From positions 1-57,791 of the forward strand of contig JACQVB010000126.1 of the NCBI GenBank assembly GCA_016209985.1: a DNA stretch of 57,791 bases. Reading direction: 5' to 3'. The DNA comes from Gemmatimonadota bacterium (GTDB lineage Bacteria; Gemmatimonadota; Gemmatimonadetes; Gemmatimonadales; GWC2-71-9). Positions 26,202-45,752 of this stretch are shown here, in pieces. Each line of letters opens with the position of its first letter. Position 1 is the stretch's first letter. The translations under genes and the position numbers were made by a program. A model generated the notes under the pieces. It ran no database searches, was not told the DNA's origin, and saw only the letters and a list, made by a program, of their open reading frames with translations.

Positions 26202-26591
26202 CTACGCGGCTGCCAGAGCCGCAGGTGCGGGGCCGGCATCTACCAAGCGCTTGTGCACCGGGTCGATCGTGAGATTCAAGCCCTCGAGCGAACGGGACCC
26301 CAGCAGAATCATGTCCCCTGGTTGAGCGAAAACGACGTCGTCGAAGGTCCGCGTCCCGGCCAGATAGAGCCGGACCTCTCCGGTCCAGCGCTCGCGCACC
26401 GATCCGTCGGCCAGGCGGAAGCGCAGTTGCTTCACTCGGTCCACGCCGAGTGATTCCAGCAGTTCGGCGGGGACCCACGACAGCTCGGCGCCCGTGTCTA
26501 TCAGCACCGAGCACAGCACCCGTCTCTCGCCCGGGCGTAGCGGGTTCTCGATCTCGACATCTACGCGGAAGCTTCCCATTTCGTCGGTCAT
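26202..26591 (-). CDS. Retropepsin-like aspartic protease domain protein
   Basis: CSVLIDTGAELSWVPAELLESLGV (DTG motif); DMILLGSRSLEGLNLTIDP. Confidence 0.8.
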   Translation of the reverse strand: MTDEMGSFRVDVEIENPLRPGERRVLCSVLIDTGAELSWVPAELLESLGVDRVKQLRFRLADGSVRERWTGEVRLYLAGTRTFDDVVFAQPGDMILLGSRSLEGLNLTIDPVHKRLVDAGPAPAALAAA

Positions 26592-26744
26592 GTTAACTCC
26601 CGAAGATGGGGCGAGTAGTATCGTACGGCAGCGGCTGACGCCGCGCCGTAATAGAACACCGCCGCATGGCCGACTGGTCGGTTCGAGGACGCCGGCGCCG
26701 GTTCCGTGACCAGCAAGGTCCGCATGCACGTTTCAAACGGCGGT

Positions 26745-27739: not shown

Positions 27740-28639
27740 TCATTCTTCGTTCGCTGCGCGCTTCCGCCGCTTCAGCTCATCATAGAGAGTTTTGCGGCTC
27801 ACGTGGAGCTCTCGGGCAGTGGCCGCCCTGTTGCCGCCGTTCTTCGCCAGAACTTGGTCCAGCCTCTCGCGCCAGTCGGCCTCCGGGCTGGCCGCCCCCA
27901 GCGGCAGCGGCAGCTCTTCGAAGATCACGAAGTGCTGAAGGACCTTCTCCAACTCGCGCACGTTGCCGGGCCAGTCGTACGAGTGCAACGCCTTCAGTTC
28001 GAGGGTTTCCAGGGACCGGACCGAGGCTCCCGACTCCCTGGTCAATCTTTCCAGCGGGTAGTCAATGAGCTCCGGAAGATCATCACGGTGGTCGCGGAGA
28101 GGGGGCATCCGCACCGGAAGGTCTCCTAATCGGTAGAGCAGGTCGCGCCGAAAGGTCCCCGCGAGCACCGCCTCCTTCAGATTCGCGTTCGTGGCGAACA
28201 CCAGCCGCACGTCGACCAGGCGGGGACGCTGTTCACCGATCCGGCGCACCTGCTTCCCTTCGATCAGGGTCAGCAGCGCTTCCTGCACGGTCGGCGAGGC
28301 GGTGGCGATCTCGTCTACAAACAGCGTCCCACCATGGGCCTGCTCGAACTTGCCCATGTAGTCGAACTCAGCCCCGGTAAACGCGCCCTTGCGGTAGCCG
28401 AGCAGCTCACCGATAGCCAGCGTATCGACCAGCAGGTTTACCGCGCAGGCCACGAAGGGACCGTGAGCACGCGGCGACATGACGTGCAGCACGCGGGCCG
28501 CCAGGCCCTTGCCGGTGCCGCTGGCTCCTTCGATGCGTACTGGCCAGGGGAATTGCGCGAGCCGGGCGAGCGCCGCGCGCACCTTGCGCATGACTGCGGA
28601 GGAACCAATGAGTGGAGTCCGGTCCAGGTATTCGACCAT
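27740..28639 (-). CDS. Sigma-54-dependent transcriptional activator (AAA+ plus Fis-type HTH, no receiver)
   Basis: GASGTGKG Walker A, GAFTGA loop, GTLFVDEI Walker B, WPGNVRELEKV, C-terminal NGGNRAATARELHVSRKTLYDELKR. Confidence 0.93.
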   Translation of the reverse strand: MVEYLDRTPLIGSSAVMRKVRAALARLAQFPWPVRIEGASGTGKGLAARVLHVMSPRAHGPFVACAVNLLVDTLAIGELLGYRKGAFTGAEFDYMGKFEQAHGGTLFVDEIATASPTVQEALLTLIEGKQVRRIGEQRPRLVDVRLVFATNANLKEAVLAGTFRRDLLYRLGDLPVRMPPLRDHRDDLPELIDYPLERLTRESGASVRSLETLELKALHSYDWPGNVRELEKVLQHFVIFEELPLPLGAASPEADWRERLDQVLAKNGGNRAATARELHVSRKTLYDELKRRKRAANEE

Positions 28640-28723: not shown

Positions 28724-29674
28724 TCACGCTTGCCGGAGGACTGTGAAGATCTTACTAGCCGGGCGCCGGAGATCGAATTGTTTCAATCTTGTATAGAGCG
28801 TGGCGCGTGATACCCCTATAGCACGCGCGGCCGCCTTGACATTCCAGCGGTGGGTCTCGAGGAGCCCCTGTAGTCGTGCCCGGTCGCTGGCCGCGTTAAA
28901 TGAGTTGCCCAGCGCGGCGAGAACTTCCTCCGCCAGAATCACCGGCCCTTCAGCCAGCAGTGCGAGCCGCTCAACGACGAATCTGAGTTCCCTCACGTTG
29001 CCCGGCCAATGGTGACGACGCAGTATACCGAGCGCACCGTTAGCGAATTGTTTGGCCGGGAGTCCCTCGTGTTGGGCAGCGCGAAGAAAGTGGCTCGCCA
29101 GCAGCTCGATGTCGTTCGGTCGCGAGCGTAAGGGTGGAAGCTCGATCACGATCCCACCGATCCGGAATAGGAAGTCCGCGCGCAGCTTGCCGGAGGCAAG
29201 CAGCGGATCGAGCGGCTCCGATAGCGCACTCACCAATCGAAAGGCGGACGCTACCCGCTCCTTGCCGCCCACTCTCCGGAAATCGTGCTGCTCGATGGCC
29301 CGGAGCAGCTTTGCCTGGAGCGGGACGGGCATGCTGTTGATTTCATCGAGAAAGAGCGTTCCATCCCGTGCCGCCTCGAGCAGGCCCGCACGCGCGTGAT
29401 GCGCGCCAGTGAAGGATCCGCGCTCCCAGCCGAAGAGCTCTCCCTCGGCCAGGGTTTCCGGGACCGCCGCGCAGTTGATGTCGATGAATGGAGCGCCTGC
29501 ATGGTTCCCCAGCGAGTGCAGCGCCCTGGCGACCAACTCCTTTCCCGTACCCGTTTCTCCCACGATCATGACCGGCAACATCTCCCCAGCTACCCGCCGC
29601 ACGAGCCGGCACACAGCCTTCATGGATGCATGCTGACCCAGCATTCCCGGAAGGATCTCAACGCTTCGGTCCAT
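28724..29674 (-). CDS. Sigma-54-dependent transcriptional activator (AAA+ plus Fis-type HTH, no receiver)
   Basis: GETGTGKELVARALH, GSFTGA loop, GTLFLDEIN, WPGNVRELRFV, WNVKAAARAIGVSRATLYTRLKQ. Confidence 0.93.
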   Translation of the reverse strand: MDRSVEILPGMLGQHASMKAVCRLVRRVAGEMLPVMIVGETGTGKELVARALHSLGNHAGAPFIDINCAAVPETLAEGELFGWERGSFTGAHHARAGLLEAARDGTLFLDEINSMPVPLQAKLLRAIEQHDFRRVGGKERVASAFRLVSALSEPLDPLLASGKLRADFLFRIGGIVIELPPLRSRPNDIELLASHFLRAAQHEGLPAKQFANGALGILRRHHWPGNVRELRFVVERLALLAEGPVILAEEVLAALGNSFNAASDRARLQGLLETHRWNVKAAARAIGVSRATLYTRLKQFDLRRPASKIFTVLRQA

Positions 29675-31187
29675 CAGGCACTCCCAGGTCGGTTCGCTTG
29701 ACGCCGGCGCGCTCCGCGTCGTCGAGTGCCTTGTCGGCTGCCATCTGGGCATTCGCGTCGTCTGTCAGAATTCGCGGCGTGATGAACAGGAAAAGTTCCG
29801 TCTCGGTGGTCCGCCGCTCTTGATGGCCGAAGAGGCCGCCGATGAACGGAAGCCACGAGAGAACCGGGATCCCGGACCGGATCACGTCCTTCTGTTGCTC
29901 TTTGAGCCCTCCCAGCACCACTGTCTGGCGGTCTCGTACCAGCAGCTCGGTCTCGGCCTCCCGCGTGGAAATGATGGGCGCGTCGAACTGCGTCTCGTTG
30001 GTGGCACTGTTCACCTCCTGACGGATCATCAGGGACACATATCCATCGCTATTGATGGTCGGTATGACCGTCAGCTTAGTGCCGACATCCTTGTACTGCA
30101 CCACCTGGTCTCGGGTGGGCGTTTCGGTGGGCAAACTGCGGCTGACCTGCACGAAGGGGCGCTGGCTGCCGACCAGAATCCGGGCTTCTCGATTGTTCGA
30201 CGCGAGCAGGACGGGTCGTGACACAATGCGCGCGTCGCCGCGCGAGACGGCCGCCCGGATGGTGGCATCGAGATCGAAGCTTCCGAGCTTCATGACCTCC
30301 AGCGCAAATTCGCCGAGTCCGCCACCCACAAGCGAGGGTTTTAGCGTGCCGTCTCCGTGATCGAACCCAAGCGCCCTGGCTGAGGCATCAGCACCGAGGG
30401 AGAATGCCCTCGCCTTTCGCACTTCGACGATCAGGACTTCGATCAGCGCCTGAAGTGGACGCAGGTCGAGCTGCTGGACGGCCGAATCGATGACGGCGAA
30501 ATCCGAGCGGCCAGAACGCACCAGCAAAGAGTTGGTCAACTCGTCGGGAACGATCACGACTGCCCCACGCAATTGGGCGACACGAGTTCCTTCGGGAGGT
30601 TGAGGCGCCGGCTGGCCGGGACCGGCAGCAGGCGGAATAGCGCCGCGCCGCAACTCGTCGGTGAGCGTGCCGGACGAGAAGCCGGTGGTCGCTCCTCCCG
30701 CGGAGATTCCAAAAAGCGCCCCGATGGTGGAGGCCACGTTCGCAGCCTTCGCGTGCTTGAGCTTGATGACCGATAATTCGATCGGTTCGCCCTGGATGTT
30801 GGTAGCGGCCACGGGTAGCGGCGGCGGCGGGCCGGTCGCTGTCTTGGATTGAACGCGATAGAAGGCCGAGTCCGCGCGCAGCTCCAAGCCGTTGGATTCG
30901 ACCAGGCCACGTATCAGGTCGAGCAGACCCGCACGAGAAACCGGCCGCGGGGTTTCCACCGTCACCTGCACCGGCTGGGTGATGCCGATGAAGAGCGGAC
31001 GGTCGAGGTAGCGGCCCAATGCCTGGAGCACCGATCTCAAGTCGGTATCCACGAATCGAAAGGAGATCGAGTCATTGAACTGGCGAATCTGCAAACTGTC
31101 CTGGGCGCTGGCGGGCGTGACGCCAGTGAGCGCGACGAGCGCGGTGCAGCAGACCCAGATTCTCAGGCAGCCGAGCACCCGGATCAC
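29658..31187 (-). CDS. gspD: Type II secretion system secretin GspD
   Basis: Signal peptide; VQVTVETPRPVSRAGLLDLI; secretin domain with GIPVLSWLPFIGGLFGHQERRTTETELFLFITPRIL. Confidence 0.93.
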   Translation of the reverse strand: MIRVLGCLRIWVCCTALVALTGVTPASAQDSLQIRQFNDSISFRFVDTDLRSVLQALGRYLDRPLFIGITQPVQVTVETPRPVSRAGLLDLIRGLVESNGLELRADSAFYRVQSKTATGPPPPLPVAATNIQGEPIELSVIKLKHAKAANVASTIGALFGISAGGATTGFSSGTLTDELRRGAIPPAAGPGQPAPQPPEGTRVAQLRGAVVIVPDELTNSLLVRSGRSDFAVIDSAVQQLDLRPLQALIEVLIVEVRKARAFSLGADASARALGFDHGDGTLKPSLVGGGLGEFALEVMKLGSFDLDATIRAAVSRGDARIVSRPVLLASNNREARILVGSQRPFVQVSRSLPTETPTRDQVVQYKDVGTKLTVIPTINSDGYVSLMIRQEVNSATNETQFDAPIISTREAETELLVRDRQTVVLGGLKEQQKDVIRSGIPVLSWLPFIGGLFGHQERRTTETELFLFITPRILTDDANAQMAADKALDDAERAGVKRTDLGVPDGPKR

Positions 31188-31663
31188 GGCGGACCTTCCT
31201 TGAGTCGCAACACCAGGGTGTCGGCCGGAGAGCCGAGTACCGCGCTGTCGGCACTGACGACCAGGAGGCGATAGACCCCGACCGGCTCTTCGATGCTCAC
31301 CACACTCGTGCCGGCGACGCCGGGAACCCCCTTGAGCACCGCACTTGGCCGGGGCCCGAGCACCACCCCGACCAACTGGGGTGAGACTGTGGTGGCGGCG
31401 CTGGTCACCAAAGGCTTGGACGGATCAAAAGCGATCGATGGCGGCCGGCGCGAGGCACGGAAGAGATTCCGATTGAGGACGAAAGGATCGAACCTCGAAT
31501 CGGGTGGCCTGGTCCGCTCGCGTCGCGCGGTCTCGGCGGCGGGCGATGACGCCGGCGGAGTCGCCTCGAGATCCACAATCGACGCCCAACTCGCCGCCGC
31601 GAGTCCCGAAGCCAGGAAGATCGTCGCGCCGACAACGGTCCAGGTCGCCAATCCGTTTACCAT
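31184..31663 (-). CDS. gspC: Type II secretion inner-membrane protein, GspC-like
   Basis: Single N-terminal TM; RNLFRASRRP, QLVGVVLGPRPSAVLKGVPG; position between gspM and gspD. Confidence 0.65.
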   Translation of the reverse strand: MVNGLATWTVVGATIFLASGLAAASWASIVDLEATPPASSPAAETARRERTRPPDSRFDPFVLNRNLFRASRRPPSIAFDPSKPLVTSAATTVSPQLVGVVLGPRPSAVLKGVPGVAGTSVVSIEEPVGVYRLLVVSADSAVLGSPADTLVLRLKEGPP

Positions 31664-32205
31664 TCGATCAACCAGCCTACTACCTGAAGGTCAAAATGCA
31701 GTCGCTGGGGTGAGGACGTGGCATCGTTGGGATTGGTCACTGACAACCGTCGCACGGAAAGCAGTTGTCTTCCGGCTTCGATCTTCCGCAACAAGCCCGA
31801 GACACCGGCAAGGTCGCCCTCTCCCTGCAGCGAGATCCCCACACGACGGAAGATTCCCGCGGTACTGTCCGGGAGTTGATCCAGCCGGGTCATGCTGAGC
31901 TTGTGATCTTGCGCCCACATCGTCAGCAGCGACGAAAGCGCGGCGTTCCCCACGGTTGCCGAGTTTGCCTGCAGGAGTCGCGGGGCGAGAGCGATCAGCG
32001 AGTCAGTGCGGGCACGCAGGACGACCTCCAGACCCGCTCGCCGTGAAACGATCTGCTGGGAACGAGCGGCGAGGTGCACCACCTGTGCGGCTTCTTCTCT
32101 GGCAGTGCCGCCCATCCTCCATACCGCCGGCACGGCGCGCCAGCCGATGGCTCCCAGGATAATCGCGCCTCCGACTACGATCGCGCGACGATCGCGGTCT
32201 ATCAC
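31657..32205 (-). CDS. gspM: Type II secretion protein GspM
   Basis: N-terminal TM, coiled coil; ferredoxin-like LSMTRLDQLPDS...; GTG start overlapping the gspL stop. Confidence 0.7.
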   Translation of the reverse strand: MIDRDRRAIVVGGAIILGAIGWRAVPAVWRMGGTAREEAAQVVHLAARSQQIVSRRAGLEVVLRARTDSLIALAPRLLQANSATVGNAALSSLLTMWAQDHKLSMTRLDQLPDSTAGIFRRVGISLQGEGDLAGVSGLLRKIEAGRQLLSVRRLSVTNPNDATSSPQRLHFDLQVVGWLIEW

Positions 32206-33353
32206 TGGGAGGTCTCTGGGTTCCAGGTGAACTTTGCCGCGAAACGCTCCCAGGAGACGCCATCTCGCAGTTCCAGCGTGACCGGGCCGTTGACGTTCAC
32301 GTCCTCGATGCCATCGGTCGTTGCCAATTTCGCGATGGCAGCCCCGGCACGTATTCCATAGCCGGCAATGTCTACGAACCGGTCGGCGCAACTGATGGAG
32401 ACGAGGTACACCGAATCAGGAAGGGCGCGTGACAGCGTTGCCAGAAGCTCGAGATCACGGGAACGGCCGGCGTCGATATCGGCCACCGTCCCAAAGGCCG
32501 CATCGAATTTCCCCATCTCCTGCTCGGCGGCGAGAATCTCATTGACTTCGGGCTGCAGCCGCTGGATCACGGCGCGGGCGCGGGTGGACTCCACGTGGAG
32601 TCGGGAGCCGTAGATCAGGCCGGCCGCGATCCAGGCGACGATCCCTGCGGCGATGACGGCAATGGTGAAGCGCCGCTGGTACCGAGTCCGCGCCGACTGC
32701 AGTGCCGTCGGGACGAACGCGATCGCTGGACGCGTGCGTGCGGCGGCGTAGGCCCCAACCCATTCGGGTGCTCGATCGCCGAGCGCCTGGAGGGCGGGAA
32801 TAGACGCGGGCCGAAGGGCTTCCTCGGACCGCGGCCGCCGCCGGATGGTCTGCAGCGCGCCCCTTCGCACCTCGATCTCCTCGGCCAGTTGTCCAGCGAG
32901 TCGCTCATGCGTTCCATCCGGAAGGACCTGCGCGACGCAGCATACAACTGGCGAGAACCACTCGGCTTCCATGCCGGCGTGCTCCATGCCATCAACGATC
33001 TCTTCCAGCAGTCCCGATTCCACGGCGGCAACCAGCGCTGTTGACCGATCACTCCATCGCGCGGCCGTCACCAGAGCGGTCGGGCCCTTGAGGAACCAGC
33101 GGTGGGGCTGAAGGCTGACTGCTCGTTGCAGACGAGACCCGGAGAGCCGAGGAAAGCCATGGAGGATCTTGACCTGGCAGCTATCGGTCTCGAGCGCGAC
33201 CCGAACGCACCTCGTGCCACGCGGCCGCTCCGACGCAAGCTCCGACAGGGCGATCCCCGGCCCGCTCTCAGTTGTGATGGCACGCTCGGCCGCCCACACC
33301 ACCCGTCCCCGCTTGAGAGCGATGGCCCGTATGGCGCGCCGCGAGATGACCAC
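32202..33353 (-). CDS. gspL: Type II secretion protein GspL/PilN-like
   Basis: Actin-like N-terminal half, TM FTIAVIAAGIVAWIAAGLIYG, C-terminal LELLATLSRALPDSVYLVSIS; start uncertain. Confidence 0.7.
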   Translation of the reverse strand: MVISRRAIRAIALKRGRVVWAAERAITTESGPGIALSELASERPRGTRCVRVALETDSCQVKILHGFPRLSGSRLQRAVSLQPHRWFLKGPTALVTAARWSDRSTALVAAVESGLLEEIVDGMEHAGMEAEWFSPVVCCVAQVLPDGTHERLAGQLAEEIEVRRGALQTIRRRPRSEEALRPASIPALQALGDRAPEWVGAYAAARTRPAIAFVPTALQSARTRYQRRFTIAVIAAGIVAWIAAGLIYGSRLHVESTRARAVIQRLQPEVNEILAAEQEMGKFDAAFGTVADIDAGRSRDLELLATLSRALPDSVYLVSISCADRFVDIAGYGIRAGAAIAKLATTDGIEDVNVNGPVTLELRDGVSWERFAAKFTWNPETSQ

Positions 33354-33364
33354 CGCGAGCCGGG

Positions 33365-33790
33365 TCAGAAGATCTCCCTTCCCACTACCGCGACACGGTA
33401 TCCGCCACGAACCCATCGCTCGGCCATCGCGGGCAAACGACGCCCAGCGACCATCCCAATGCCGATGACCCGCAGGGGACCGGGGCCGGAATCCGAGGGG
33501 ATCTCTATGGCGCAAGCGATGCCTGGGGACAGAGTGACCGTCCCGATCCGGGTTGGCAGTCTCTCTGGATCCGACCACGAGGCGGTGTCACCATCCCGTA
33601 CCCAGCGCTCCGCCCGCGCCCGGGCAAGATTGAGACATCCCTCCGCCACCCAGCGAGCCACCGCGATACTCGTGCGATAGCGTGATGTGAGCTGAACATT
33701 GCTCGCGAATCGAAACGCCAGTGCCGACGCCGCCCCAACGGCGACGAGCACCCAAAGAACGATGAGCAGAGTTATGCCGCGTGACGTCAT
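33365..33790 (-). CDS. gspK: Type II secretion minor pseudopilin GspK-like
   Basis: MTSRGITLLIVLWVLVAVGAASALAFRFAS. Confidence 0.7.
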   Translation of the reverse strand: MTSRGITLLIVLWVLVAVGAASALAFRFASNVQLTSRYRTSIAVARWVAEGCLNLARARAERWVRDGDTASWSDPERLPTRIGTVTLSPGIACAIEIPSDSGPGPLRVIGIGMVAGRRLPAMAERWVRGGYRVAVVGREIF

Positions 33791-34374
33791 CCGCGAGTCC
33801 CGATGCGAAGTAGCAGGGTATCGGTCCCGGATTGCCGGCTGATCCGCAGCCGCGCCGCCACCGGTCCGCTCACCGGCGAGACCCACTCGGATACCCATTT
33901 CGAGTTGGATCCGTATTCGATGAGATGGTCGGCCGAGAAGGTTGTGACCGAATCCGCCAAGTCCAACGTTGCGCTCTGCCCCCTGTCCCCTGTCTCGGGG
34001 TCGAGGCGAGCTCGCAATTGGCCCTGGGGAGAAAGGCTGATGGTCACGAGGCGATACTCCGGCACGCTGTCCACGCGGGCAAGCGTGGTGAACTGAATCC
34101 GTGCGCCGGGACTCCCGCGAAGACCGGCAAACCCACGTTGAGGGGTGGACGAGAACTCTGCACTCCCGAACGCTCGAAGCAGCCAATCGCGCCGGTTGAA
34201 CCGGCGGTCGGTCTCCCTGCTGGCGGTCATTGTTCGATCGGCTCCGTCGGTGACCGATGCCAGGATCTCCCTCGCGAGCAGGATGACGATCCCGCTCACC
34301 GCGAGTGAAACCATCAGCTCCACCAGCGTGAAGCCGCCTCGCCGGCGTGCAGACCGCGGGTGCCTACTGGTCAT
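33787..34374 (-). CDS. gspJ: Type II secretion minor pseudopilin GspJ
   Basis: Prepilin motif RRGGFTLVELMVSLAVSGIVI. Confidence 0.8.
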   Translation of the reverse strand: MTSRHPRSARRRGGFTLVELMVSLAVSGIVILLAREILASVTDGADRTMTASRETDRRFNRRDWLLRAFGSAEFSSTPQRGFAGLRGSPGARIQFTTLARVDSVPEYRLVTISLSPQGQLRARLDPETGDRGQSATLDLADSVTTFSADHLIEYGSNSKWVSEWVSPVSGPVAARLRISRQSGTDTLLLRIGTRG

Positions 34375-34720
34375 CAGAGGGCCCTGGGCGATAGATCACC
34401 GTCACCAGATCCGGAGCAGACCAGCCGATCCCAACCCCGACGCGATAGAGACTCCAGTCGAGTCGCTCCACTGTCAGGGCGTATTCACCGACTATCACTC
34501 TGCCAATTCGCTGTTCGAGATCCTGACGATCGAGCAGTGCGTACGCGGTCAAGAGGCGATCTTCCTGGGCGAGCTGCTCCTCTACCTCTCTGGTGCGGCT
34601 CGCACTCCGGGCGGCTTGCGCCGTGAGGTCCACGAAGCCGAGACCGGCGACGGCAACGATGGTGAGCGCGACCAGTGCCTCGATCAGCGCGAATCCCTGC
34701 CGGCTCACATTAGCGCGCAT
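34364..34720 (-). CDS. gspI: Type II secretion minor pseudopilin GspI
   Basis: RQGFALIEALVALTIVAVAGLGFV. Confidence 0.75.
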   Translation of the reverse strand: MRANVSRQGFALIEALVALTIVAVAGLGFVDLTAQAARSASRTREVEEQLAQEDRLLTAYALLDRQDLEQRIGRVIVGEYALTVERLDWSLYRVGVGIGWSAPDLVTVIYRPGPSDDQ

Positions 34721-35021
34721 GGATCAGGTCTCCGGTCCAGGGATCGATCCGCAGCGTATCCCGTCCTTCGGCTAGAAGCACTGGGATCGCAGACCCGTCA
34801 GGGAAAAACACCATGCGAGTGGTTGAGTCGCGTACCAGCGCGACTGTACGACCGGTGCGAACCGCGGAGTCGCGCGCGGCTTCGGCTGGTGCGAGGAATG
34901 ATGATTCCGGCTCTGGGCGCGACGGCACGACCGCGGCGGCAACGAGGCCGAGGCAGACGCCGAGGATGGCGAGTGAGACGATCAGCTCGAGCAAGGTGAA
35001 CCCACCGGCCGCGTGGTTCAT
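34710..35021 (-). CDS. gspH: Type II secretion minor pseudopilin GspH
   Basis: MNHAAGGFTLLELIVSLAILGVCLGLVAAAVVPS. Confidence 0.78.
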   Translation of the reverse strand: MNHAAGGFTLLELIVSLAILGVCLGLVAAAVVPSRPEPESSFLAPAEAARDSAVRTGRTVALVRDSTTRMVFFPDGSAIPVLLAEGRDTLRIDPWTGDLIHAR

Positions 35022-36190
35022 CCGACGCGCAGTCCGTATACGGCTTGCAACATGGCAGCGGCGACCAGCGCGATCACCGCACCGAAGAGCACTATCAGCG
35101 AGGGCTCGAGCAGCCTGACCGCAGAATTGAGCGTCCGGGCCGCGTACTCCTCGGCGAGCGCCGCGGCTCGGTCGAGAAAGTCGGGAACCCGCCCGGAGTC
35201 TTCTCCGATGCGCAGGAGCTGGATCGCTTGGGCGGACAGCGCCTGGAACGAGGCCAAGGCCTGGCTCAGCGACTCGCCCCGACGGATCGCCTCGGTTGCC
35301 TTGAGAATCCGGCCGCGGATCACCAGGTCTCCCGAGGCTTCGGCCGCCGCTGCCAGTGCAATGAGGGCAGGAGTACCTCGCCCCAGCAACGCGGCGAGGG
35401 TTCGGGACACTCGGCTGGTCGCGAGGGCCAGTCGTAGATCGCCAACGACTGGAATGGCCAGCAGAGTACGATGCCCTGATTCTGATCGGAGCCACTGGGC
35501 ACCGGCGACCGCCATTGCGAAGGCCCCAACCAGAACCAGCAACCAACCCTTGTTAAGGAAAGCGCCGAGACCGAGGAGCAACCGCGTGCTGGCCGGGAGC
35601 GTCACGGCCGACCCACCGAGGAGGCGGACGAAGCGAGGCAAAACTCCGATCAGCAGCGTGGCGATGGCCACGCTACCCACGAAGAGCAGGATACAGGGGT
35701 ACGCCAGCGCCGAACGCAGCTTCGCTGTGAGGTCCGCTTCTCGCTCGAGGTGCACCGCCGCGCGTTCTAACGCTTCGCTAAGCCCAGCGGCCTCTCCCGA
35801 TCGCACCAGTCCCACCACGACGCCGGGCACGCCTGGGTGAGCGGCGAGCCCATCGCCAAATCGCTCGCCCTCTCGAATGCGGCGCAGCAGATCATCTACC
35901 AGGGAATCGATTGCACCGCTGCCTCGGCTGGCACGCAGCGCTTCATCGAGGGTGATACCTGCGGAAAGCAGCGTGGCAAGCCCGCGCAAGAGAATAGCCA
36001 TGTCGCGCAGCGGCCATCGCCGCCGGGTCGCGTTGGTCGATGCTGGCGTGATGACCACGGGCGTGAGCTTCCGGCGTGCCAGGGAGTCGAGTGCCGATGT
36101 CGCGTCGGCGGCAGTCAGGACTCCGTATACCAACTCGCCATCGGCACGTGCCGCTTCGAAGCGAAAAGTTTTCACTTGGGGTTGCCCCAT
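35018..36190 (-). CDS. gspF: Type II secretion inner-membrane protein GspF
   Basis: LRDMAILLRGLATLLSAGITLDEAL; RRGESLSQALASFQALSAQAIQLLRIGEDSGRVPDFLDRAA. Confidence 0.92.
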   Translation of the reverse strand: MGQPQVKTFRFEAARADGELVYGVLTAADATSALDSLARRKLTPVVITPASTNATRRRWPLRDMAILLRGLATLLSAGITLDEALRASRGSGAIDSLVDDLLRRIREGERFGDGLAAHPGVPGVVVGLVRSGEAAGLSEALERAAVHLEREADLTAKLRSALAYPCILLFVGSVAIATLLIGVLPRFVRLLGGSAVTLPASTRLLLGLGAFLNKGWLLVLVGAFAMAVAGAQWLRSESGHRTLLAIPVVGDLRLALATSRVSRTLAALLGRGTPALIALAAAAEASGDLVIRGRILKATEAIRRGESLSQALASFQALSAQAIQLLRIGEDSGRVPDFLDRAAALAEEYAARTLNSAVRLLEPSLIVLFGAVIALVAAAMLQAVYGLRVG

Positions 36191-36618
36191 GAGGTGATAT
36201 CGCCGTCCTCGCCTTCGCCGCCCGGCTCGCCGTCGCGGCCGAGGGAGAGGAGATCGTAGCCGGCGGGATTCGCGGTCCCGGGCGACCGGTACAGATACGG
36301 CCGGTTCCAGGGGTCGTTGGGGATCTCTTTTCGGGTGTAGGGCCCCCGCCATCTGGGCGGCAGGGGCGGTGTTTGTGGCGCCTGCCAGAGCGCTGCAAGC
36401 CCCTGCACCGCGGTTGGGTACATTGCGTTGTCCAGCCGGTAGGAATCCAGCGCCAGGCCGAGGGACTCGATTTGGGAGCGCGCCGCCTGGAGCTTCGCGT
36501 CGGAGACGTGCTGGAAGACCTGAGGAGCGACGACTCCTGCGAGCACACTGATCACTACGATCACTACCATAAGCTCGATCAACGTGAACCCGCGGCGCGA
36601 GTCAATCGGTCGTGACAC
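36172..36618 (-). CDS. gspG: Type II secretion major pseudopilin GspG
   Basis: RRGFTLIELMVVIVVISVLAGVVAPQVF; GPYTRKEIPNDPWNRPYLYRSPG; probable GTG start at 36618. Confidence 0.92.
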   Translation of the reverse strand: MSRPIDSRRGFTLIELMVVIVVISVLAGVVAPQVFQHVSDAKLQAARSQIESLGLALDSYRLDNAMYPTAVQGLAALWQAPQTPPLPPRWRGPYTRKEIPNDPWNRPYLYRSPGTANPAGYDLLSLGRDGEPGGEGEDGDITSWGNPK

Positions 36619-38095
36619 GCAGGACCTCCTCGACCGTGGTGATTCCGGTTCGGACCTTGCTCCATCCATCTCGCCGCAGGGTTCTCATGGCCCGTGCGGT
36701 GGCGCATTCTTTGAGTTCCGCCCGACTCGCGCGCCGGAGCACGGCATCGCGTAGTTCCTCATCCACGGTCAGCAGCTCGAAGATTCCGGTGCGGCCTTTG
36801 AATCCGGTTTGGCGGCACGCGACGCACCCAGCGCCTCGCTCGAGCTTCGCGCGCCGAATCGGCGTCTCGGCAATCAGCGCGACAGATTGCGGGTCTGGTT
36901 CGTACTGCATGCGGCAATGGGGGCAGATCTTTCTGACCAGCCGCTGGGCCAGGACGGCTTCGAGGGTCGAGGCGAGCAGGTAGGGTTCGATGCCGAGGTC
37001 CATCAGGCGCGGTACGGCGCTCACCGCATCATTGGTATGGAGGCTCGAGAAGACCGCATGGCCGGTGAGGGCCGCGCGAATGGCCACATCGGCGGTCTCG
37101 CCGTCCCGCATTTCACCCACCATCAGGACGTTGGGATCCTGTCGCAGCACGTTTCGCAGCACCGCGGCGAAAGTCACGCCGGTCGCTGCGTTCACCGGGA
37201 TCTGAGTCGTTCCCGGGAGTTGGTACTCGATGGGATCTTCGACGGTGAGGATCTTCTCGGCCATGGCGTCCCGGAGTCCGATCGTGGCATACAGCGTGGT
37301 CGTCTTGCCGCTACCGGTGGGACCGGTAACCAGGACGATCCCATGCGGCCGGAGCGACAACTCGCGGAATTGGGAAAGCGTATCCGAATCCATCCCCAGC
37401 TCATCCGGCGCTACCGGCCTGCCGCCGCGTTCCAGCAGGCGAAGAACCAGGCTTTCGCCGAAGAGCGACGGCACGGTGGAAACGCGAAGGTCCAGCTCGC
37501 GATCTTCGAGCCGAGCCCTGATCCGCCCGTCCTGGGGCTTCCGCCGTTCGGCGATGTCGAGCGAGGCCAGGAGCTTGATGCGCGAGACGACCGCGTTGGC
37601 GATTCCCCGTGGCGGCCCTTCGATATCGGAAAGCACCCCGTCCAGCCGGAGCCGTATGCGGAGCCCCGTTTTGGTCGATTCGAGGTGAATGTCGCTCGCA
37701 CCGGACGAGGACGCGTCCCGCAGGAGCAGGTTGACATAGCGGATAACCGGGGGCTGGTTGGCGAGGTTGCGGGCGTCGGCGAGATCGTGATCGTCCGCGA
37801 GATTCGCATCCTCACGGCCGGCGTCATCGATCAACTCAACGACGGACTCGTTCGCATCCATGGCGCGGCGGATGGCCTCGCCGAGTTCATCCGGCTCAGC
37901 GGGGACGATCTCGATCGGGAGTTGCCAGAGCAGACTCAGGTCATCGAGGGCCTGAGGATCGGGGTCGCCCGCGGCTGCGACGCGCAGTTTTCCCTCGGCA
38001 ATCTCGAGCGGAAGCACCTGGAATTGCTCCAGGTATTCAGCCGCGAGGACGTCGGGAACGCTGAGTCCGGTTTTGGAGCCTGCTGGAAAAACCAC
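36602..38095 (-). CDS. gspE: Type II secretion ATPase GspE
   Basis: GPTGSGKTTTLYATI, ASDIHLES, GEMRDGETADVAIRAALTGHAVFSSLHTNDA, CPHCRMQYEP. Confidence 0.95.
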   Translation of the reverse strand: MVFPAGSKTGLSVPDVLAAEYLEQFQVLPLEIAEGKLRVAAAGDPDPQALDDLSLLWQLPIEIVPAEPDELGEAIRRAMDANESVVELIDDAGREDANLADDHDLADARNLANQPPVIRYVNLLLRDASSSGASDIHLESTKTGLRIRLRLDGVLSDIEGPPRGIANAVVSRIKLLASLDIAERRKPQDGRIRARLEDRELDLRVSTVPSLFGESLVLRLLERGGRPVAPDELGMDSDTLSQFRELSLRPHGIVLVTGPTGSGKTTTLYATIGLRDAMAEKILTVEDPIEYQLPGTTQIPVNAATGVTFAAVLRNVLRQDPNVLMVGEMRDGETADVAIRAALTGHAVFSSLHTNDAVSAVPRLMDLGIEPYLLASTLEAVLAQRLVRKICPHCRMQYEPDPQSVALIAETPIRRAKLERGAGCVACRQTGFKGRTGIFELLTVDEELRDAVLRRASRAELKECATARAMRTLRRDGWSKVRTGITTVEEVLRVTTD

Positions 38096-38127: not shown

Positions 38128-38143
38128 TACAAGGGTTGTGCCA
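38128..38143 (-). promoter_or_regulatory. Candidate sigma-54 (-24/-12) promoter for the gsp operon
   Basis: Minus strand TGGCAC-AACCC-TTGTA versus consensus TGGCAC-N5-TTGCW, about 33-48 nt upstream of the gspE start. Confidence 0.7.
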
Positions 38144-38276: not shown

Positions 38277-38834
38277 TCAGTTTTGGTCTTCGTACGCGAT
38301 GGCGGATTCCTCGCGCTCCGTCGCGAAAACTTCATAAAAGGACAATTCGATCCATGGTCCTTTTTCCCACCAAAAGCAAGCTCGATGCAACGCCATGGAC
38401 AGCGGTTCAGTCGCCTTAGCCGTCTGGTCCTCCACCGTTAACCGAGCAATTTCAGCGAAGCCCCAGTTTAGACGGCTTGGAGACCTGATCATCGCGGGAG
38501 TGAGAGAGTTCATGATGTGCAGATCCTGCACTTGGCAGAATGCAAGAGTAATGATTCGCCTCTTCTCCCAAGAACCACGAACCTTACCATCATCACCCCA
38601 GACGTAGTCCACATCGACTTCAATTCGAGTCCCGAAAGCCAACCAGCGGACATCCCGGACGATGCATTCCCGGAAGTCTCGGTACGCGTGCACATAGGCC
38701 CGAATTTCAGAAATGTCCTTCACACCGGCACCAAGCACGTGAATCGAGTCATCGGTTGAAGATCGGTAAGTGAGCCGACCTTGCGTACGGTGAACCTTCG
38801 GTTGATTCCTGTTCGGCCAAAGGCAGGTTACCAC
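38277..38834 (-). CDS. Hypothetical protein, possible immunity protein
   Basis: Lower-GC ORF in the region downstream of the RHS toxin gene; no family recognised. Confidence 0.5.
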   Translation of the reverse strand: MVTCLWPNRNQPKVHRTQGRLTYRSSTDDSIHVLGAGVKDISEIRAYVHAYRDFRECIVRDVRWLAFGTRIEVDVDYVWGDDGKVRGSWEKRRIITLAFCQVQDLHIMNSLTPAMIRSPSRLNWGFAEIARLTVEDQTAKATEPLSMALHRACFWWEKGPWIELSFYEVFATEREESAIAYEDQN

Positions 38835-39331
38835 ACAAAGATGACATGAAACGGGATGCCCGTCGAAGCTTTCTCCTCCGCAGCCGCCAAGACGGAAGAG
38901 AGCAGCCGTGCTGAGACCTGTGGGAGTCTACGCCAGAATGTATCGGCGCTGCGTACAATCAGCAGGTATCCCTTTGCGCCAGGCTTATCGAGGTCCGACA
39001 GTACTTCAATGACTGCGTTCCAGTTCATTCCGAAACTGGCCGCCAGGTCGAATGCTGAGGAAAAAAGATCAAAGAATGCGCGCTCGTCAAAAACCGCTGT
39101 CGTATCCATTTCGACGATGTGCAATTCAGTTCGGCCCAGCGCGTCGAGGAGGGCCGCGGTCTCCCCCTCCGAAAAGAAGTGAATGCAAACCCACGAGACC
39201 ATCTTGAGGTCGTCGGGATGCAGCGGCAGCCGTGGCCCCCTTCGTGCAAACACTTTAGCGGATCCTCGTTGTTCCTCGGGCGCAATGGACGCGGGTGGAT
39301 CGGATCTACTCCGGAGGCCGCCGAATGCCAC
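38828..39331 (-). CDS. Barstar-like immunity protein
   Basis: ELHIVEMDTTAVFDERAFFDLFSSAFDLAASFGMNWNAVIEVLSDLDKPGAKGYLLIVRSADTFWRRL fits the barstar pattern. Confidence 0.7.
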   Translation of the reverse strand: MAFGGLRSRSDPPASIAPEEQRGSAKVFARRGPRLPLHPDDLKMVSWVCIHFFSEGETAALLDALGRTELHIVEMDTTAVFDERAFFDLFSSAFDLAASFGMNWNAVIEVLSDLDKPGAKGYLLIVRSADTFWRRLPQVSARLLSSVLAAAEEKASTGIPFHVIFVW

Positions 39332-39486: not shown

Positions 39487-39756
39487 TTATCGGTGTCCTA
39501 ACCAGTCTATGGCGGCTTGGACCAATAATCCGTATTCGTTTGGCTCATCATCCTCGCGGAGCCCCGACTCGACGAATTCGGCCGCCAGGGCCTCGCGTAT
39601 GAGTTCTCGCTCCACAATTGACAGGGGTCGGAGGTCCATGATTGTCAGGACCTCTTGTTTATCAGGTGCGCGTCGGCGAAGCACGTCACCAATGAGTTGC
39701 CGAAGCACCTTCTCAGTTACGCCGACCCCATAGTTTTTCAAGGACGAATTCTCCAT
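39487..39756 (-). CDS. Putative cognate immunity protein for the RHS C-terminal toxin
   Basis: MENSSLKNYGVGVTEKVLRQLIGDVL...; start overlaps the RHS stop codon by about 18 bp. Confidence 0.55.
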   Translation of the reverse strand: MENSSLKNYGVGVTEKVLRQLIGDVLRRRAPDKQEVLTIMDLRPLSIVERELIREALAAEFVESGLREDDEPNEYGLLVQAAIDWLGHR

Positions 39757-42700
39757 CCAGCAAGCGTTCGTGCCCACGTCGTGACGACCAGCCCAGCTTG
39801 GTTGAGAACTACGCTCGCGTCCTGCCCGATGTAAAGCATCTTGCCCCCAGCTTGCGCTACGACGCTCAAAGGATTCCTAACAGCGTCAAGTATACCTCTG
39901 GAGCTGACACCAACGCCGTCCCTTGAAATGGCTTGATTCAGACCATGTTTGGTGAAACCGGCGATTCGGCCGGCTACGACCTTACCGCCGACGCCCCTGA
40001 GGGCGCCCAGCAAACCAAAGTACTCAACAGGTCCCAAGCCGATGCTCACGGTGCGATCCTGTGCAGCCAGCCGCTGGGCCGCAGACCCGAAGGCACCTTC
40101 GGCGGCAGCCCGGCAAAGAACGCAGTCGCCTCCCTTGTTTGCCGCGCTCCAACGGTCCGCGAATGCCCTGTACCACGGGTCCGCTATGACATTTATGGGC
40201 GGCAGAGGCACCGGACACTTCGGATCCCTCGTCCAATCGCAACCGGCCTCATCGTCGGCGAGACCTGTCGGATCACGACCGTTCACCGGATCCCCGGTCG
40301 CATAGGCATAGGGATTAATTCCACCCTCGAGGCCGACTGGATCCTCACTCAAGAACCTTCCCGTGTGTGGCTCGTACCACCGGTTCCGCATGTAGTAGAG
40401 CCCGCCGCTCCCGACGTCGCCGAACCAGAGCGCCCCCTTCCATCGCGCCCGGTCACGGTCGGCGAACCCGCCGGGGTCGGTCCCCGCAACGAGCTTTCCC
40501 CATTCGTCGTAGACGTAGGTCCGCTGCGTGGTCGGACCTGTACTGACGTTCGTTAGCGCTATGACATTGCCGAGAGCATCAGAATGAGCCATATACTGAA
40601 GGCTATTAACGGTGATCGATTCGAGGCCGTCAGTCCCGCCTGGATAGTACGAGTAAGCCGTGATCGTAGCACCGGCAGCATCCAGCTCCGCCCCAAGATG
40701 ATCCTCATCCCAGGCATAGTACCGGATCGTTCCGTTCACATCCCTCTTGGCCAGCCGGCCGTAGGCGTCGTAGTAATTCCTGGTCTTTTGCCCGTTGACT
40801 GCTAGGGAATCGAGGCGACTCTCGGCCGACCACCAGAACGAGGCCCCCTCTGATCCGCAGGTGCGGCTGGAGACATTGCCATCGGCATCCGCGACGCCGT
40901 ACGTGCAGCTATTGAACGCGGTAATGCGATTACCCGTTGTGTAAGCTCCCCCAAGGTCCCTGCGATTGCCGACGGAGTCATACCCAAAACTTCTAGTCGA
41001 GGTAACCGTTGTGTTGCAGGTGTACCCGTTATCCTCGCTCCAATAGCAGCCACTGGTGGTGACCGAATCGGTCTGGTTCAGACGCGCCGTCGCGTCGTAG
41101 CCGTACTTGGCTCCGATATTGCCGATGTTTTTCTGAAGCCTCAGCCGATCGCCGACGTCGTATTCCATCTCACGCCAGACGTCTGACTGATAAGCGGCGC
41201 TGGTCCAGATTTGCCCTGCGTCGTGGACAGTGGAGAACGAACGATTCACGACGTCGCCACCCCAGAAACTCGTCGTCGTAGCTCGCAGGTCTGCATTGTA
41301 TCCCAATGCGGTTGAGAGCGTCCCGCCGACATAAATGGTGTCCAGACTTCCCCGCAGAGTGCCGATGGCGAAAGAGCGCGCCGATGCGGGGCCAGCCGCA
41401 CTCGTCAGCATCCCGGCTGAGTTATAGCCATACCGGAGCCACCGATCGCCAAACGAGAACGTGTTCTTGACCGAGTCTTCCTGACCACGAGCGTTGAGGT
41501 AGCTCATTACCGTTGCAACAGGGCTTGTTGCCGTGACGACTCGGCCATTAGACGCGTAAGCCCACGACTCGGCCTGAGTGTTCGTTCCGGATTTGCTCGT
41601 GAGGCGGTGGAGAGGATCGTACCCGTAATCGATGTTTTGATTCCGCCGGTTCTTGAGCTGTTTAAGCAATCCGTCCCGGTCGTATTTCAGCGTCTCGGCC
41701 GTTCCGGTGGGATCCTTCCGACTGGTCAACCACCCCAGCGAGTTGTAGCCGAATTCATAGACCTGCGCGTTGGGATCCGTTACGCGCGTGAGGTGGAGAC
41801 TGTCTCCATAGACCAGAGAGATCGTCCCGAGTGTCCCCGGCGCATTCACCAGACTCGTCGGACGGTTCAGGATGTCATAGAACGTCTTGGGCCACAGCAG
41901 TGTCGATGCGGCGGGAACGAAGACGGAATCGCGACCATAGACATCCGAGACATACTGATTCACTCTCCCACCAGGCATCGAATCCTTGTTCAGATTTCCG
42001 TTGCCGCCTAGATACCAGCTCTGGGTGAGCAGGTGGTTCATCCCGTCAGTCGCCGTGAGAACTCTGCCGCGCCAGTCGTAGGTGTACTTGGTGATCGTGC
42101 CGGTACTTCCACCTACTCGCACCGAGGCCACTCGGCCGTTCGCCCCGATGTACCTCCGGATCGTCGGCTGGTCGGTGCCCCAGATGCTGTCGGGCTCGGC
42201 GAACGCCGCGTAGCGAATATTCGTGGCGCTGGTGTTCTTGGGCCGGAGGTAGGTCGGGAGCCCGCTGCTATTGTAGAGGGTCGTGTCCGCCAGCCCGGCC
42301 GGATCCACCGTATCGAGCGTATCCCGGACCGTGGTCGGCTGGCCGTTACTGGTGCGGGTAATCCGGATCGATTTGCCGAGCGGGGTATCAATCCGGGCCG
42401 GGACACCCCATCGACCCTCATAGTAGTATTTCGTGACGTGCCCGCCAGCATCCGTGACTCTGGAGTAGTTGTCCATGCTGGTCACCGGAGGGAACGGGCT
42501 CGAGCCCGTTAAGCGAGACGGCACGACTTGCTTCTGCCACGACTGCAGCGTCACCACCGGCGCGATATTGCTCGAATCAGGATAAATCGTGATGGCCGGG
42601 TACGTGATGGTCTTCACCTTACCGGTCGAGTCGTCGTAGGCGAGAGTAGTCGCCTTGCCACGCCGATCGGTGATCGTTGAAAGCCGCGCATTTCCATCGT

Positions 42701-44321
42701 ATCCGAAGGTGGCCGCGATGTTGTCAGGATCGCGAATCTCGGTGAGCCTCCTGCTTCCATCGACGTTCACGGTGGTACTGCGACCGAACGGGTCGGCGAT
42801 CTGTGAGAGGCCGTTCGTGCCGTAGCTAAGCGTGAGGTCCAGGCTTTGCGGATCGCGAATCGTCTGGATCCGGCCACTGCCGTCATAATAGATCCAGGTC
42901 ATGTTCAAGAATCGGTCATTGACCGAAGCCATTCTGCCGTTTGAATCGAACCAGACCGTGGTCGAGTCAGGATATTTCCGGAACCAGTTGCTTCCATCGT
43001 AGAGCAGATCGGCGAATTCGCCGGCGGGACGGGTGAAGGAGCTTCCCGACTTCTGGTAAAAGACCGCACTACCGTCGCCCTCGGTGATCAAGGCCGAGCC
43101 GTCTGGTTGCGCGTAGAGACGTTGAATTCCCGCGACCGTCCAACCCCGCGCAATCGCTGAGTTGTTCTCGTTCACGACGATGAGCTTCTTGAAGGTAGTG
43201 GCTCCTGCCGTCCCGTCGCTGTATTTCGACGTGACGATAACGGCGAGCTCGTACTTGCCGGTGCTCCCCATGCCATTCGCCGCTGCATCGAACTGCCCTC
43301 CAATCCGAACCCAGGCGAGCAGAGGATCACCGCTGCTGGGCGCCACGAATTTGAGGCGCGTTTCACCATTCAAGAACGTGATCAGTCCGCCACCGGACTT
43401 CTGAGCCTCCAGCCAGAACTCTTGTGGAGGGGTGCCACCACCTTCGGGATGCCGGACATCGACTATGATGAACGGCTTGGGGTCCACCCGATCGCCATGA
43501 TAGACCAGCGTGACATTCCGGGGAGTGTTCAGGCTGAGGTATGGAACAGTCGACTGAGAATAGGTCGCCGCATAGCAGGACATGTTGCAGCGACTCATGT
43601 CCTGTTTCACATAAGAGTCCATCGGGCCAGTGGTCACGACCTGCGGGGCGACCCAGGATGTCGTCACGTTGTAGAGACCGTCGTCTATCGCCCCGGTCCC
43701 AGATTCCGTCGCGACCAGCGTGACGGACCCGTTCCCGGACCCGACATTGTAATAGGCCGTGACGTTGGTAGAGGCCCCGTTCGCCAGCCCGCTCACGGTC
43801 CCCGGCGGCGTGCACGAGTTCACCCATTGCCATATGGCACACGTGAACGTGTAGTTACGGCTGGATCCGCTGTTGTTGGTGACCGTAAACGTCACCGGAT
43901 TTGAATAGGAGTTTTGAGAGGCGGTGGTCGCGCCTCCGTCGGGGATCACCGTTGGCCGGGTATAGCCGACGGTCACGTTGTATTTGCCATACACAATCGT
44001 TCCACCGCCCACCGGTGTCAGCTTCAACTGGACGTACCCGGACCCGTTGGTCGAGGAAACATTGAAGTTGACGGTCTTCTGAATAGTCGTCCCCGCGCCC
44101 ATGTCGATGTACGTTCCTCCGGTGACGGTACAGGTTGTTACTTGCCCTCCCTTCAAGCAGGACAAGTTGGCGTCCCAGGACCGGTTCGCGCCTTTCCAGA
44201 TGGTGAACGTCGCGGCGTTATTCGTGCCGCCGGGACTGGCACTGAGGGAGCCCGCTACGGGCGTCACGCAGAAATCGTCGTAGCAGGTTTGCGCCGCTGC
44301 CGAGGAGACCAAGAACAACAT
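39738..44321 (-). pseudogene. RHS repeat protein with C-terminal toxin domain; 5' end interrupted by the IS (original start inferred at 45578)
   Basis: Many YD/RHS repeats; core RWYEPHTGRFLSEDPVGLEGGINPYAYATGDPVNGRDPTGL; variable C-terminus GFTKHGLNQAISRDGVGVSSRGILDAVRNP. Confidence 0.9.
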
Positions 44322-44346
44322 CGAGAGCAGAACCAGGACCGTCAGG

Positions 44347-45557
44347 TGTACTTAGTGGAAGTTCCCCGGACAGTTCCGGTGGTCGCCGGTTCCTAACGCT
44401 TCGTCACGCTGCCTGCGGCTGACTCATCGCCGCGAGTCCATCCTGGAATGCTTGCCACGGCGTGCGCCCTTGCGTGCGATAGCCGTGGTGACTCCGCTCC
44501 TCGTTGTAGAAGTGCAGCCAGGTGTCTAGATCCTCCTGTAACTCCTGGACGCTGACGTAGAGCTTCTTCCGCAGCGCCACACTGAAGAATTCCTCTTTCA
44601 GCGTCCGGTGAAAGCGCTCGCAGAAGCCGTTGGTCTTCGGGCTGTGCACCTTCGTGTTCCGATGCTCGATCTGCTGCACCGCGAGGTAGAGCTCGAAGGG
44701 ATGGTGCAGCGGCCGGCCGCAGAACTCCCTTCCGTTGTCCGTGAGCAGGTGCTCCAGGGCAATCCCGGCGGTCTCGTAGATCGGCAGCACGCGATCGTGC
44801 AGCAGATCCACGGCCGTCATCGGGATCTTCGAGAGATAGAGCTTGGCCTGCGCCCACGAGCAGTGCGCATCCACGAAGCTCTGGGCGTAGATCCGCCCCA
44901 CGCCTTTGAGCGTCCCCACGAAGTAGGTGTCCTGGCAGCCGAGATAGCCCGGCGTCGGCGCGTCGACGTGCTGCTCCGGATCGGTCAGCTGCTGCCGCTG
45001 ATACCGGGCGAGCAGCTTGGCCACGCGCTCGGTCAGCGGTCCGCCGGTCGCCGCGGCCTCCCGCTCAAGCCACAACAGCCGATCGTAACGCTTCACCAGG
45101 CCGCGCCGGAGCCACACGCCGCGGACCTGGTTCGCGGTCGCCGGCACCCCGATCAGCTTCAGCTGGTCGCTGATCTTCACATAGCTGTACGTCGGGTACT
45201 CCTTGCTCATCGCGAGAATCTGCTGCTCCAGCTCGGCGGGCGTCTCATTCGGCATCCGCGGCCGTCTCCTCGCCACCGGCGCCAGGCCTTCCCGCCCGTA
45301 CTTCTCGAAGGCGTCCTTGATATCGTAGAAATGACTGCGACTGATGCCGGCCACCTTGCACGCCCGGCTGATGCTCTGGAGTTCATCCGCCAGTGCTAGC
45401 ATCGAGACACGGGCCTGGATAAGCTTCTCTCGGGTGCTCATCGCTCCTCCTCTGGTAAACTGGTTTGACTTGACATCTCCAGCTTACCACCGGAAAAGGG
45501 CTTTGAGCACCCTTCAGCTTTTCAGGCTGACTGTCCGCTCATCTTCCACTAAGTACA
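44347..45557. mobile_element. IS481-family insertion sequence, intact
   Basis: Terminal inverted repeats TGTACTTAGTGGAAGTTCCCCGGACAGT / TGTACTTAGTGGAAGATGAGCGGACAGT; 7-bp direct repeat CGTCAGG at 44340-44346 and 45558-45564. Confidence 0.92.
44404..45441 (-). CDS. IS481 family transposase
   Basis: N-terminal HTH (ACKVAGISRSHFYDIKDAFEKYGREGL); DDE region FVDAHCSWAQAKLY, LTDNGREFCG, NGFCERFHRTLKEEFF. Confidence 0.92.
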   Translation of the reverse strand: MSTREKLIQARVSMLALADELQSISRACKVAGISRSHFYDIKDAFEKYGREGLAPVARRRPRMPNETPAELEQQILAMSKEYPTYSYVKISDQLKLIGVPATANQVRGVWLRRGLVKRYDRLLWLEREAAATGGPLTERVAKLLARYQRQQLTDPEQHVDAPTPGYLGCQDTYFVGTLKGVGRIYAQSFVDAHCSWAQAKLYLSKIPMTAVDLLHDRVLPIYETAGIALEHLLTDNGREFCGRPLHHPFELYLAVQQIEHRNTKVHSPKTNGFCERFHRTLKEEFFSVALRKKLYVSVQELQEDLDTWLHFYNEERSHHGYRTQGRTPWQAFQDGLAAMSQPQAA

Positions 45558-45752
45558 CGTCAGGGGGACGCGCCGCATGGTGACTCCGGGAAAGGTTCTG
45601 CCCGGATACATGGGCACGCTCCGTGCCGAATCGTTCGGTTCGCTATGTGCAGGAAAAACAACCAGTTGTAGCGGAGGGGGACAAACGAAAAGTGGCACCT
45701 TCCACCGAGAATCCGGAGCGGTCTTACTCTTCCCTTTTCCCCTTCGCTCGGC

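What the first reader, a model, noticed from the sequence alone, without database searches (positions are those of the whole stretch)
44340..45578. IS481 element sits inside the signal peptide of the RHS gene; the original reads through perfectly after excision
Removing 44347-45557 and one CGTCAGG copy gives ATGCGGCGCGTCCCCCTGACGGTCCTGGTTCTGCTCTCGATGTTGTTCTTGGTCTCCTCGGCAGCGGCGCAA = MRRVPLTVLVLLSMLFLVSSAAAQ, a textbook Sec signal peptide in frame with the RHS ORF, with GGAG upstream of the ATG at 45578. The ORF-track start (44321) is therefore an artefact of the insertion, and export of this large RHS protein is probably disrupted while its coding body is intact, suggesting a recent event.
Basis: seen in the sequence. 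Interest (0 to 1): 0.72.

Follow-up and report, generated by a model that had tools for sequence, protein, structure and literature searches.

The report
Transposon-split RHS toxin beside secretion operon
A jumping gene has landed inside the export signal of a large toxin-like RHS protein in an uncultured bacterium; the insertion itself is ordinary, but the gene sits next to what looks like its own dedicated type II secretion machine, an arrangement that recurs in many relatives and that I found no description of.

Summary
An intact IS481-family element (44347-45557, 7-bp duplication CGTCAGG, 15-bp perfect terminal repeats) splits the N-terminal codons of an RHS gene. The true start (ATG 45578, GGAG 5 nt upstream, sigma-54-like box 34 nt upstream) now reads MRRVPLTCT and stops at a TAG inside the IS end. 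The 1,527-aa body (44321-39738) begins after a TAA in the other IS end, without the basic n-region of its Sec signal. Homologues, including a paralogue in the same genome, carry Sec signal peptides. 'Recent' is plausible but unproven. The larger result is the context. The RHS gene (with immunity-like genes downstream) is followed on the same strand by a type II secretion operon and two sigma-54 activators. In the phylum this GspE lineage lies within 20 kb of an RHS core far more often than chance (20 of 74 against 1.3 expected), the RHS-linked GspEs form one clade (100/99), and sigma-54 boxes are enriched before the RHS genes. Best reading: an insertion-inactivated effector of a dedicated, sigma-54-controlled T2SS-RHS polymorphic toxin island.

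The parts
44347..45557 (-). IS481-family insertion sequence, 1,211 bp, 15-bp perfect terminal repeats
44404..45441 (-). IS481 transposase, 345 aa, same orientation as the RHS gene
   Evidence: NF033577, 239 bits, cut-off 224
44340..44346 (.). target-site duplication copy 1, CGTCAGG
45558..45564 (.). target-site duplication copy 2, CGTCAGG
45558..45578 (-). 5' remnant of the RHS gene: native ATG and first 7 codons (MRRVPLT), now ending at TAG 45551-45549 in the IS end
45584..45587 (-). GGAG ribosome-binding site, 5 nt before the native ATG
45613..45628 (-). sigma-54-like -24/-12 box CGGCACGGAGCGTGCC, 34 nt before the native ATG
   Evidence: boxes of this type recur before homologous RHS genes
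39738..44351 (-). 3' remnant of the RHS gene (open frame from 44351, first ATG 44321): end of Sec signal, N-terminal beta-type domains, YD/RHS repeats, RHS core, variable C-terminal toxin-like domain
39738..40085 (-). variable C-terminal (toxin-like) domain; homologue on another RHS protein in G238
   Evidence: fold not resolved
39487..39756 (-). immunity-like small ORF next to the C-terminal domain; homologue directly follows the homologous C-terminal domain in G238
38828..39331 (-). Barstar-family (immunity-like) gene
   Evidence: PF01337, 3.9e-14
38277..38834 (-). unknown ORF, possible further immunity or orphan gene
38128..38143 (-). weak sigma-54-like box TGGCACAACCCTTGTA upstream of gspE
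36602..38095 (-). GspE, T2SS ATPase
   Evidence: T2SSE, 5e-128
35018..36352 (-). GspF
33365..35546 (-). pseudopilin genes: N-methylation motif at 34710-35546, 34364-34720 and 33787-34374; a fourth ORF (33365-34186) has no Pfam hit
32202..33578 (-). GspL/PilN-like
31657..32391 (-). GspM
31184..31663 (-). GspC-position ORF, conserved in RHS-linked T2SS operons
   Evidence: assignment by position only
29658..31187 (-). GspD secretin
28724..29752 (-). sigma-54 activator (AAA + HTH, no receiver domain)
27740..28639 (-). second sigma-54 activator

Best explanation
A copy of an IS481-family element inserted, with a 7-bp duplication, between codon 7 and the hydrophobic core of the Sec signal peptide of an RHS polymorphic-toxin-like gene. 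The sigma-54-like promoter, ribosome-binding site and basic n-region are now cut off from the RHS body by stop codons carried in both IS ends, so the protein is probably not made in exportable form (inferred). The gene belongs to a conserved island in which a dedicated type II secretion system (GspE, F, pseudopilins, L, M, C, D), its own sigma-54 activators, Sec-signal RHS proteins and immunity-like genes lie together. The likely mechanism of the intact system (inferred): sigma-54 switches on the island, Sec moves the RHS protein to the periplasm, the linked T2SS moves it outside, and the variable C-terminus acts on a competitor while immunity proteins protect the producer.
For: IS anatomy. 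Sec signals on homologues. T2SS plus sigma-54 activators next to the RHS gene. Same arrangement in other genomes. GspE within 20 kb of an RHS core: 20 of 74 against 1.3 expected overall; 14 of 23 against 0.8 for the closest GspEs, or 13 of 22 without the window. RHS-linked GspE is one clade, 100/99. Sigma-54 boxes before RHS genes: 9 of 28 with at least 9 of 12 matches, background 4%, p about 1e-6. RpoN present in this genome. Toxin/immunity pair conserved in G238.
Against: No expression or secretion data. Several RHS homologues have no T2SS nearby and some T2SSs of the lineage have no RHS in reach; most of these are at contig ends, but one is followed by a TonB receptor. The C-terminal domain matches no described toxin family and its model is of low confidence. 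Sigma-54 boxes are not found before every RHS gene. The linkage test assumes random gene placement, and the clade test used 20 chosen sequences.
Confidence: 0.75

Rival explanations
1. Ordinary IS hit in a decaying, unimportant RHS gene; the neighbouring T2SS is a general exoenzyme secretion system and its proximity to RHS genes is incidental.
For: IS insertions into RHS genes are unremarkable (general knowledge); not all RHS homologues are T2SS-linked; a T2SS of the same lineage is followed by a TonB receptor in G268.
Against: Linkage far above chance, a single RHS-linked GspE clade distinct from the other T2SS of the same genomes such as G011 C10, shared sigma-54 boxes; the RHS body shows no stop or frameshift.
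Confidence: 0.2
2. The IS does not silence the gene: the RHS protein is still made from the remnant, from CTG codons just inside the gene or ATG 44321, perhaps from a promoter in the IS, giving a cytosolic or poorly exported protein.
For: Open frame from 44351 with CTG codons before the hydrophobic core; coding body intact.
Against: No sigma-70-like promoter found in the region; no GGAG-type site before these codons by eye; the basic n-region is missing.
Confidence: 0.15
3. Assembly artefact or strain mixture: the IS join is a MAG chimera.
For: Source is a 289-contig assembly.
Against: Matching 7-bp duplication, perfect terminal repeats, and only one full copy of the element in the genome, so no repeat for an assembler to confuse.
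Confidence: 0.03

Closest known systems
IS481 family (NF033577)
   Same: Transposase over the family cut-off, TGT...ACA ends, 7-bp duplication inside the 2-15 bp range reported for the family (PMC10045372).
   Different: Nothing unusual; nearest full-length relatives found are 60% identical, in Acidobacteriota MAGs.
Polymorphic toxin systems exported by Sec/'T2SS' (Zhang et al. 2012, PMC3482391)
   Same: Signal peptide, RHS repeats, variable C-terminus, adjacent immunity-like gene.
   Different: That survey uses 'T2SS' for the general secretory pathway, gives '-' for signature neighbour genes, and mentions no GspD, GspE, secretin or sigma-54 in the text held. Here a Gsp apparatus and sigma-54 activators are physically linked.
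P. aeruginosa H2-T6SS with RpoN/Sfa2 (PMC8855297)
   Same: Cluster-encoded sigma-54 activator coordinates a secretion system and its toxin set.
   Different: Type VI, not type II; the effectors here carry Sec signals. An analogy, not membership.
Wall-associated RHS toxins such as WapA (from general knowledge; S. suis WapA is in PMC12704120)
   Same: Exported RHS polymorphic toxins.
   Different: Firmicute; no linked secretin system.

Membership tests
IS481 family | transposase over the curated family score | tested here: met
   239.3 bits vs cut-off 224
IS481 family | TGT...ACA terminal inverted repeats and target duplication of 2-15 bp | tested here: met
   15-bp perfect repeats, 7-bp duplication; relatives 6-7 bp
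RHS/YD-repeat proteins | RHS repeats and RHS-associated core | tested here: met
   PF05593, TIGR01643, TIGR03696 over cut-off
Polymorphic toxin system | variable C-terminal domain after the core, shared between otherwise different proteins | tested here: met
   C-terminus found on another RHS-core ORF in G238, and absent from the RHS proteins of nearer relatives
Polymorphic toxin system | adjacent immunity gene | tested here: inconclusive
   small ORF follows the same C-terminus here and in G238; Barstar gene further on; protection not tested
Polymorphic toxin system | toxic activity of the C-terminus | not testable with these tools
   no family match; low-confidence model
Type II secretion system | GspE, GspF, secretin GspD, pseudopilins, L/M platform | tested here: met
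   GspC by position only
T2SS substrate | Sec signal peptide on the protein family | tested here: met
   present on homologues; in the window the signal is split
T2SS substrate | export depends on GspD/GspE | not testable with these tools
   needs a cultured relative
Sigma-54 regulon | -24/-12 box plus activator and RpoN | tested here: met
   regulation itself not shown

The most novel reading that the evidence does not exclude
In this phylum a separate lineage of type II secretion systems, carrying its own sigma-54 activators, is dedicated to exporting very large Sec-signal RHS polymorphic toxins; the window shows one such effector naturally inactivated by an IS while the machine stays intact.
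Probability: 0.55. Interest if true: 0.72.

Novelty: new variant of a known kind. Interest (0 to 1): 0.52.

Why it matters
The IS insertion alone is routine. If the island works as proposed, it gives RHS toxins of diderm environmental bacteria a delivery route other than type VI: a dedicated T2SS with built-in sigma-54 control. That raises a testable question of how a secretin passes a 1,500-3,400-residue RHS protein. It also warns that gene callers will start this RHS gene at 44321 and miss the signal peptide.

Tried and rejected
Allelic empty site: none in 60 relatives or 298 phylum genomes; the only other member of the genus held lacks the gene. Other full IS copies in the genome: none, only a 94-bp, 81%-identical end remnant on C213. 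Sigma-70-type promoter in the IS or upstream: none. Naming the toxin fold: no Pfam or NCBIfam match, AlphaFold model pLDDT 38, so no fold search was made. Plasmid collection for named relatives of RHS or GspE: only distant general hits. Strong sigma-54 boxes before gspE across the clade: only 3 of 17 reach 10 of 12 matches, so this is left as weak.

Full report
Observation. The minus-strand RHS gene is split by a 1,211-bp element at 44347-45557, flanked by the 7-mer CGTCAGG (44340-44346, 45558-45564) and ending in 15-bp perfect inverted repeats TGTACTTAGTGGAAG. Its 345-aa transposase exceeds the NCBIfam IS481 cut-off (239 vs 224 bits). Distant relatives of the element in the same phylum have TGT...ACA ends and 6-7-bp duplications; a published survey gives 2-15 bp for IS481, mostly 6 (PMC10045372). 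It is the only full copy in the genome; a 94-bp end remnant at 81% identity lies on C213.

Effect on the gene. I read each side on its own and did not join the flanks, because this is probably a toxin gene. From the native ATG (45578) the reading is MRRVPLTCT and then TAG in the IS end; from the other side a TAA in the IS end lies just before the open frame, which starts at 44351. The duplicated 7-mer is in the same phase in both flanks. GGAG lies 5 nt before the native ATG and a sigma-54-like box, CGGCACGGAGCGTGCC, 34 nt before it. So promoter, ribosome-binding site and the basic n-region are on one side, and the hydrophobic core, cleavage region and the whole body on the other. CTG codons upstream of ATG 44321 could give a core without n-region, but no sigma-70-like promoter was found in the region and no GGAG-type site is evident there.

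Relatives. No close allele exists in the genomes searched (best homologue 57% over part of the N-terminus), so the empty site was not seen, and the string proposed for finding it occurs in the filled allele. 'Recent' rests only on the perfect duplication, the intact transposase and the intact body.

Context. Downstream on the same strand lie a small immunity-like ORF, a Barstar-family gene (PF01337), an unknown ORF, and then a type II secretion operon with GspE, GspF, pseudopilins, a PilN/GspL-like protein, GspM, an ORF in the GspC position and the GspD secretin, followed by two sigma-54 activators. In G238 the homologous C-terminal domain sits on an RHS-core ORF and is again followed directly by a homologue of the small ORF. 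The genome encodes RpoN.

Generality. T2SS genes with a sigma-54 activator next to an RHS gene recur in G006, G005, G011, G004, G230, G133, G045, G209, G160, G297, G037, G023 and G268; G134 and G123 have T2SS genes beside RHS without a detected activator. Among 74 GspE hits of this lineage in 298 genomes, 20 are within 20 kb of an RHS core against 1.3 expected; for the 23 closest it is 14 against 0.8, or 13 of 22 without the window. The list of RHS matches was cut off in the output, so linked cases may be under-counted. Most of the unlinked close hits stop at contig ends (G029, G216, G055, G265), and G166 has a very long Sec-type protein with a weak RHS-repeat match right after the activator. 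In a tree of 20 GspE sequences, 11 RHS-linked ones form one group with support 100/99, apart from other T2SS GspEs including a second one of G011. With the classical sigma-54 consensus (taken from memory), 9 of 28 RHS upstream regions reach 9 of 12 matches against 4% of random regions, p about 1e-6; before gspE the signal is weak.

Interpretation. Shown: the insertion, the split signal peptide, the gene neighbourhood, its recurrence above chance, and the shared promoter-like boxes. Inferred: sigma-54 control, export through the linked T2SS, antibacterial action of the C-terminus, and loss of function in this strain. One contig of G043 has 4,636,964 bases, which from memory is the length of the Gemmatimonas aurantiaca T-27 chromosome; this would make the phylum Gemmatimonadota, but no tool named it.

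Comparison with the literature. Zhang et al. 2012 list RHS toxins under 'T2SS/Sec' but mean the general secretory pathway, with no signature neighbour genes and no mention of GspD, GspE, secretin or sigma-54 in the text held. Searches of the open-access library found no account of an RHS-linked T2SS; subscription papers are not covered. The RpoN/Sfa2-controlled H2-T6SS of P. aeruginosa is the nearest regulatory analogue.

Noticed in passing
   Followed up: yes
L173 8179-9147 (G238:C61): Homologous RHS C-terminal domain directly followed by a homologue of the window's small immunity-like ORF.
   Followed up: partly
L002 1501-1590 (G000:C213): 94-bp degraded end of a related IS481 element, no transposase.
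   Followed up: partly
window 45613-45628: The sigma-54-like box is also a palindrome (GGCACG-GAG-CGTGCC); some relatives share part of this symmetry (e.g. TGGCACTCGGCGTGCC in G045 and G047), so another DNA-binding protein may be involved.
   Followed up: no
window 26202-26729: Retropepsin-like aspartyl protease gene close to the end of the sigma-54/T2SS run, in a dip of G+C.
   Followed up: no
L183/L184 (G268:C1) and L176 6923-15100 (G166:C26): Very long Sec-type ORFs (3,406 aa and over 2,700 aa) beside T2SS operons of the same lineage, with little direct similarity to the window RHS protein.
   Followed up: partly
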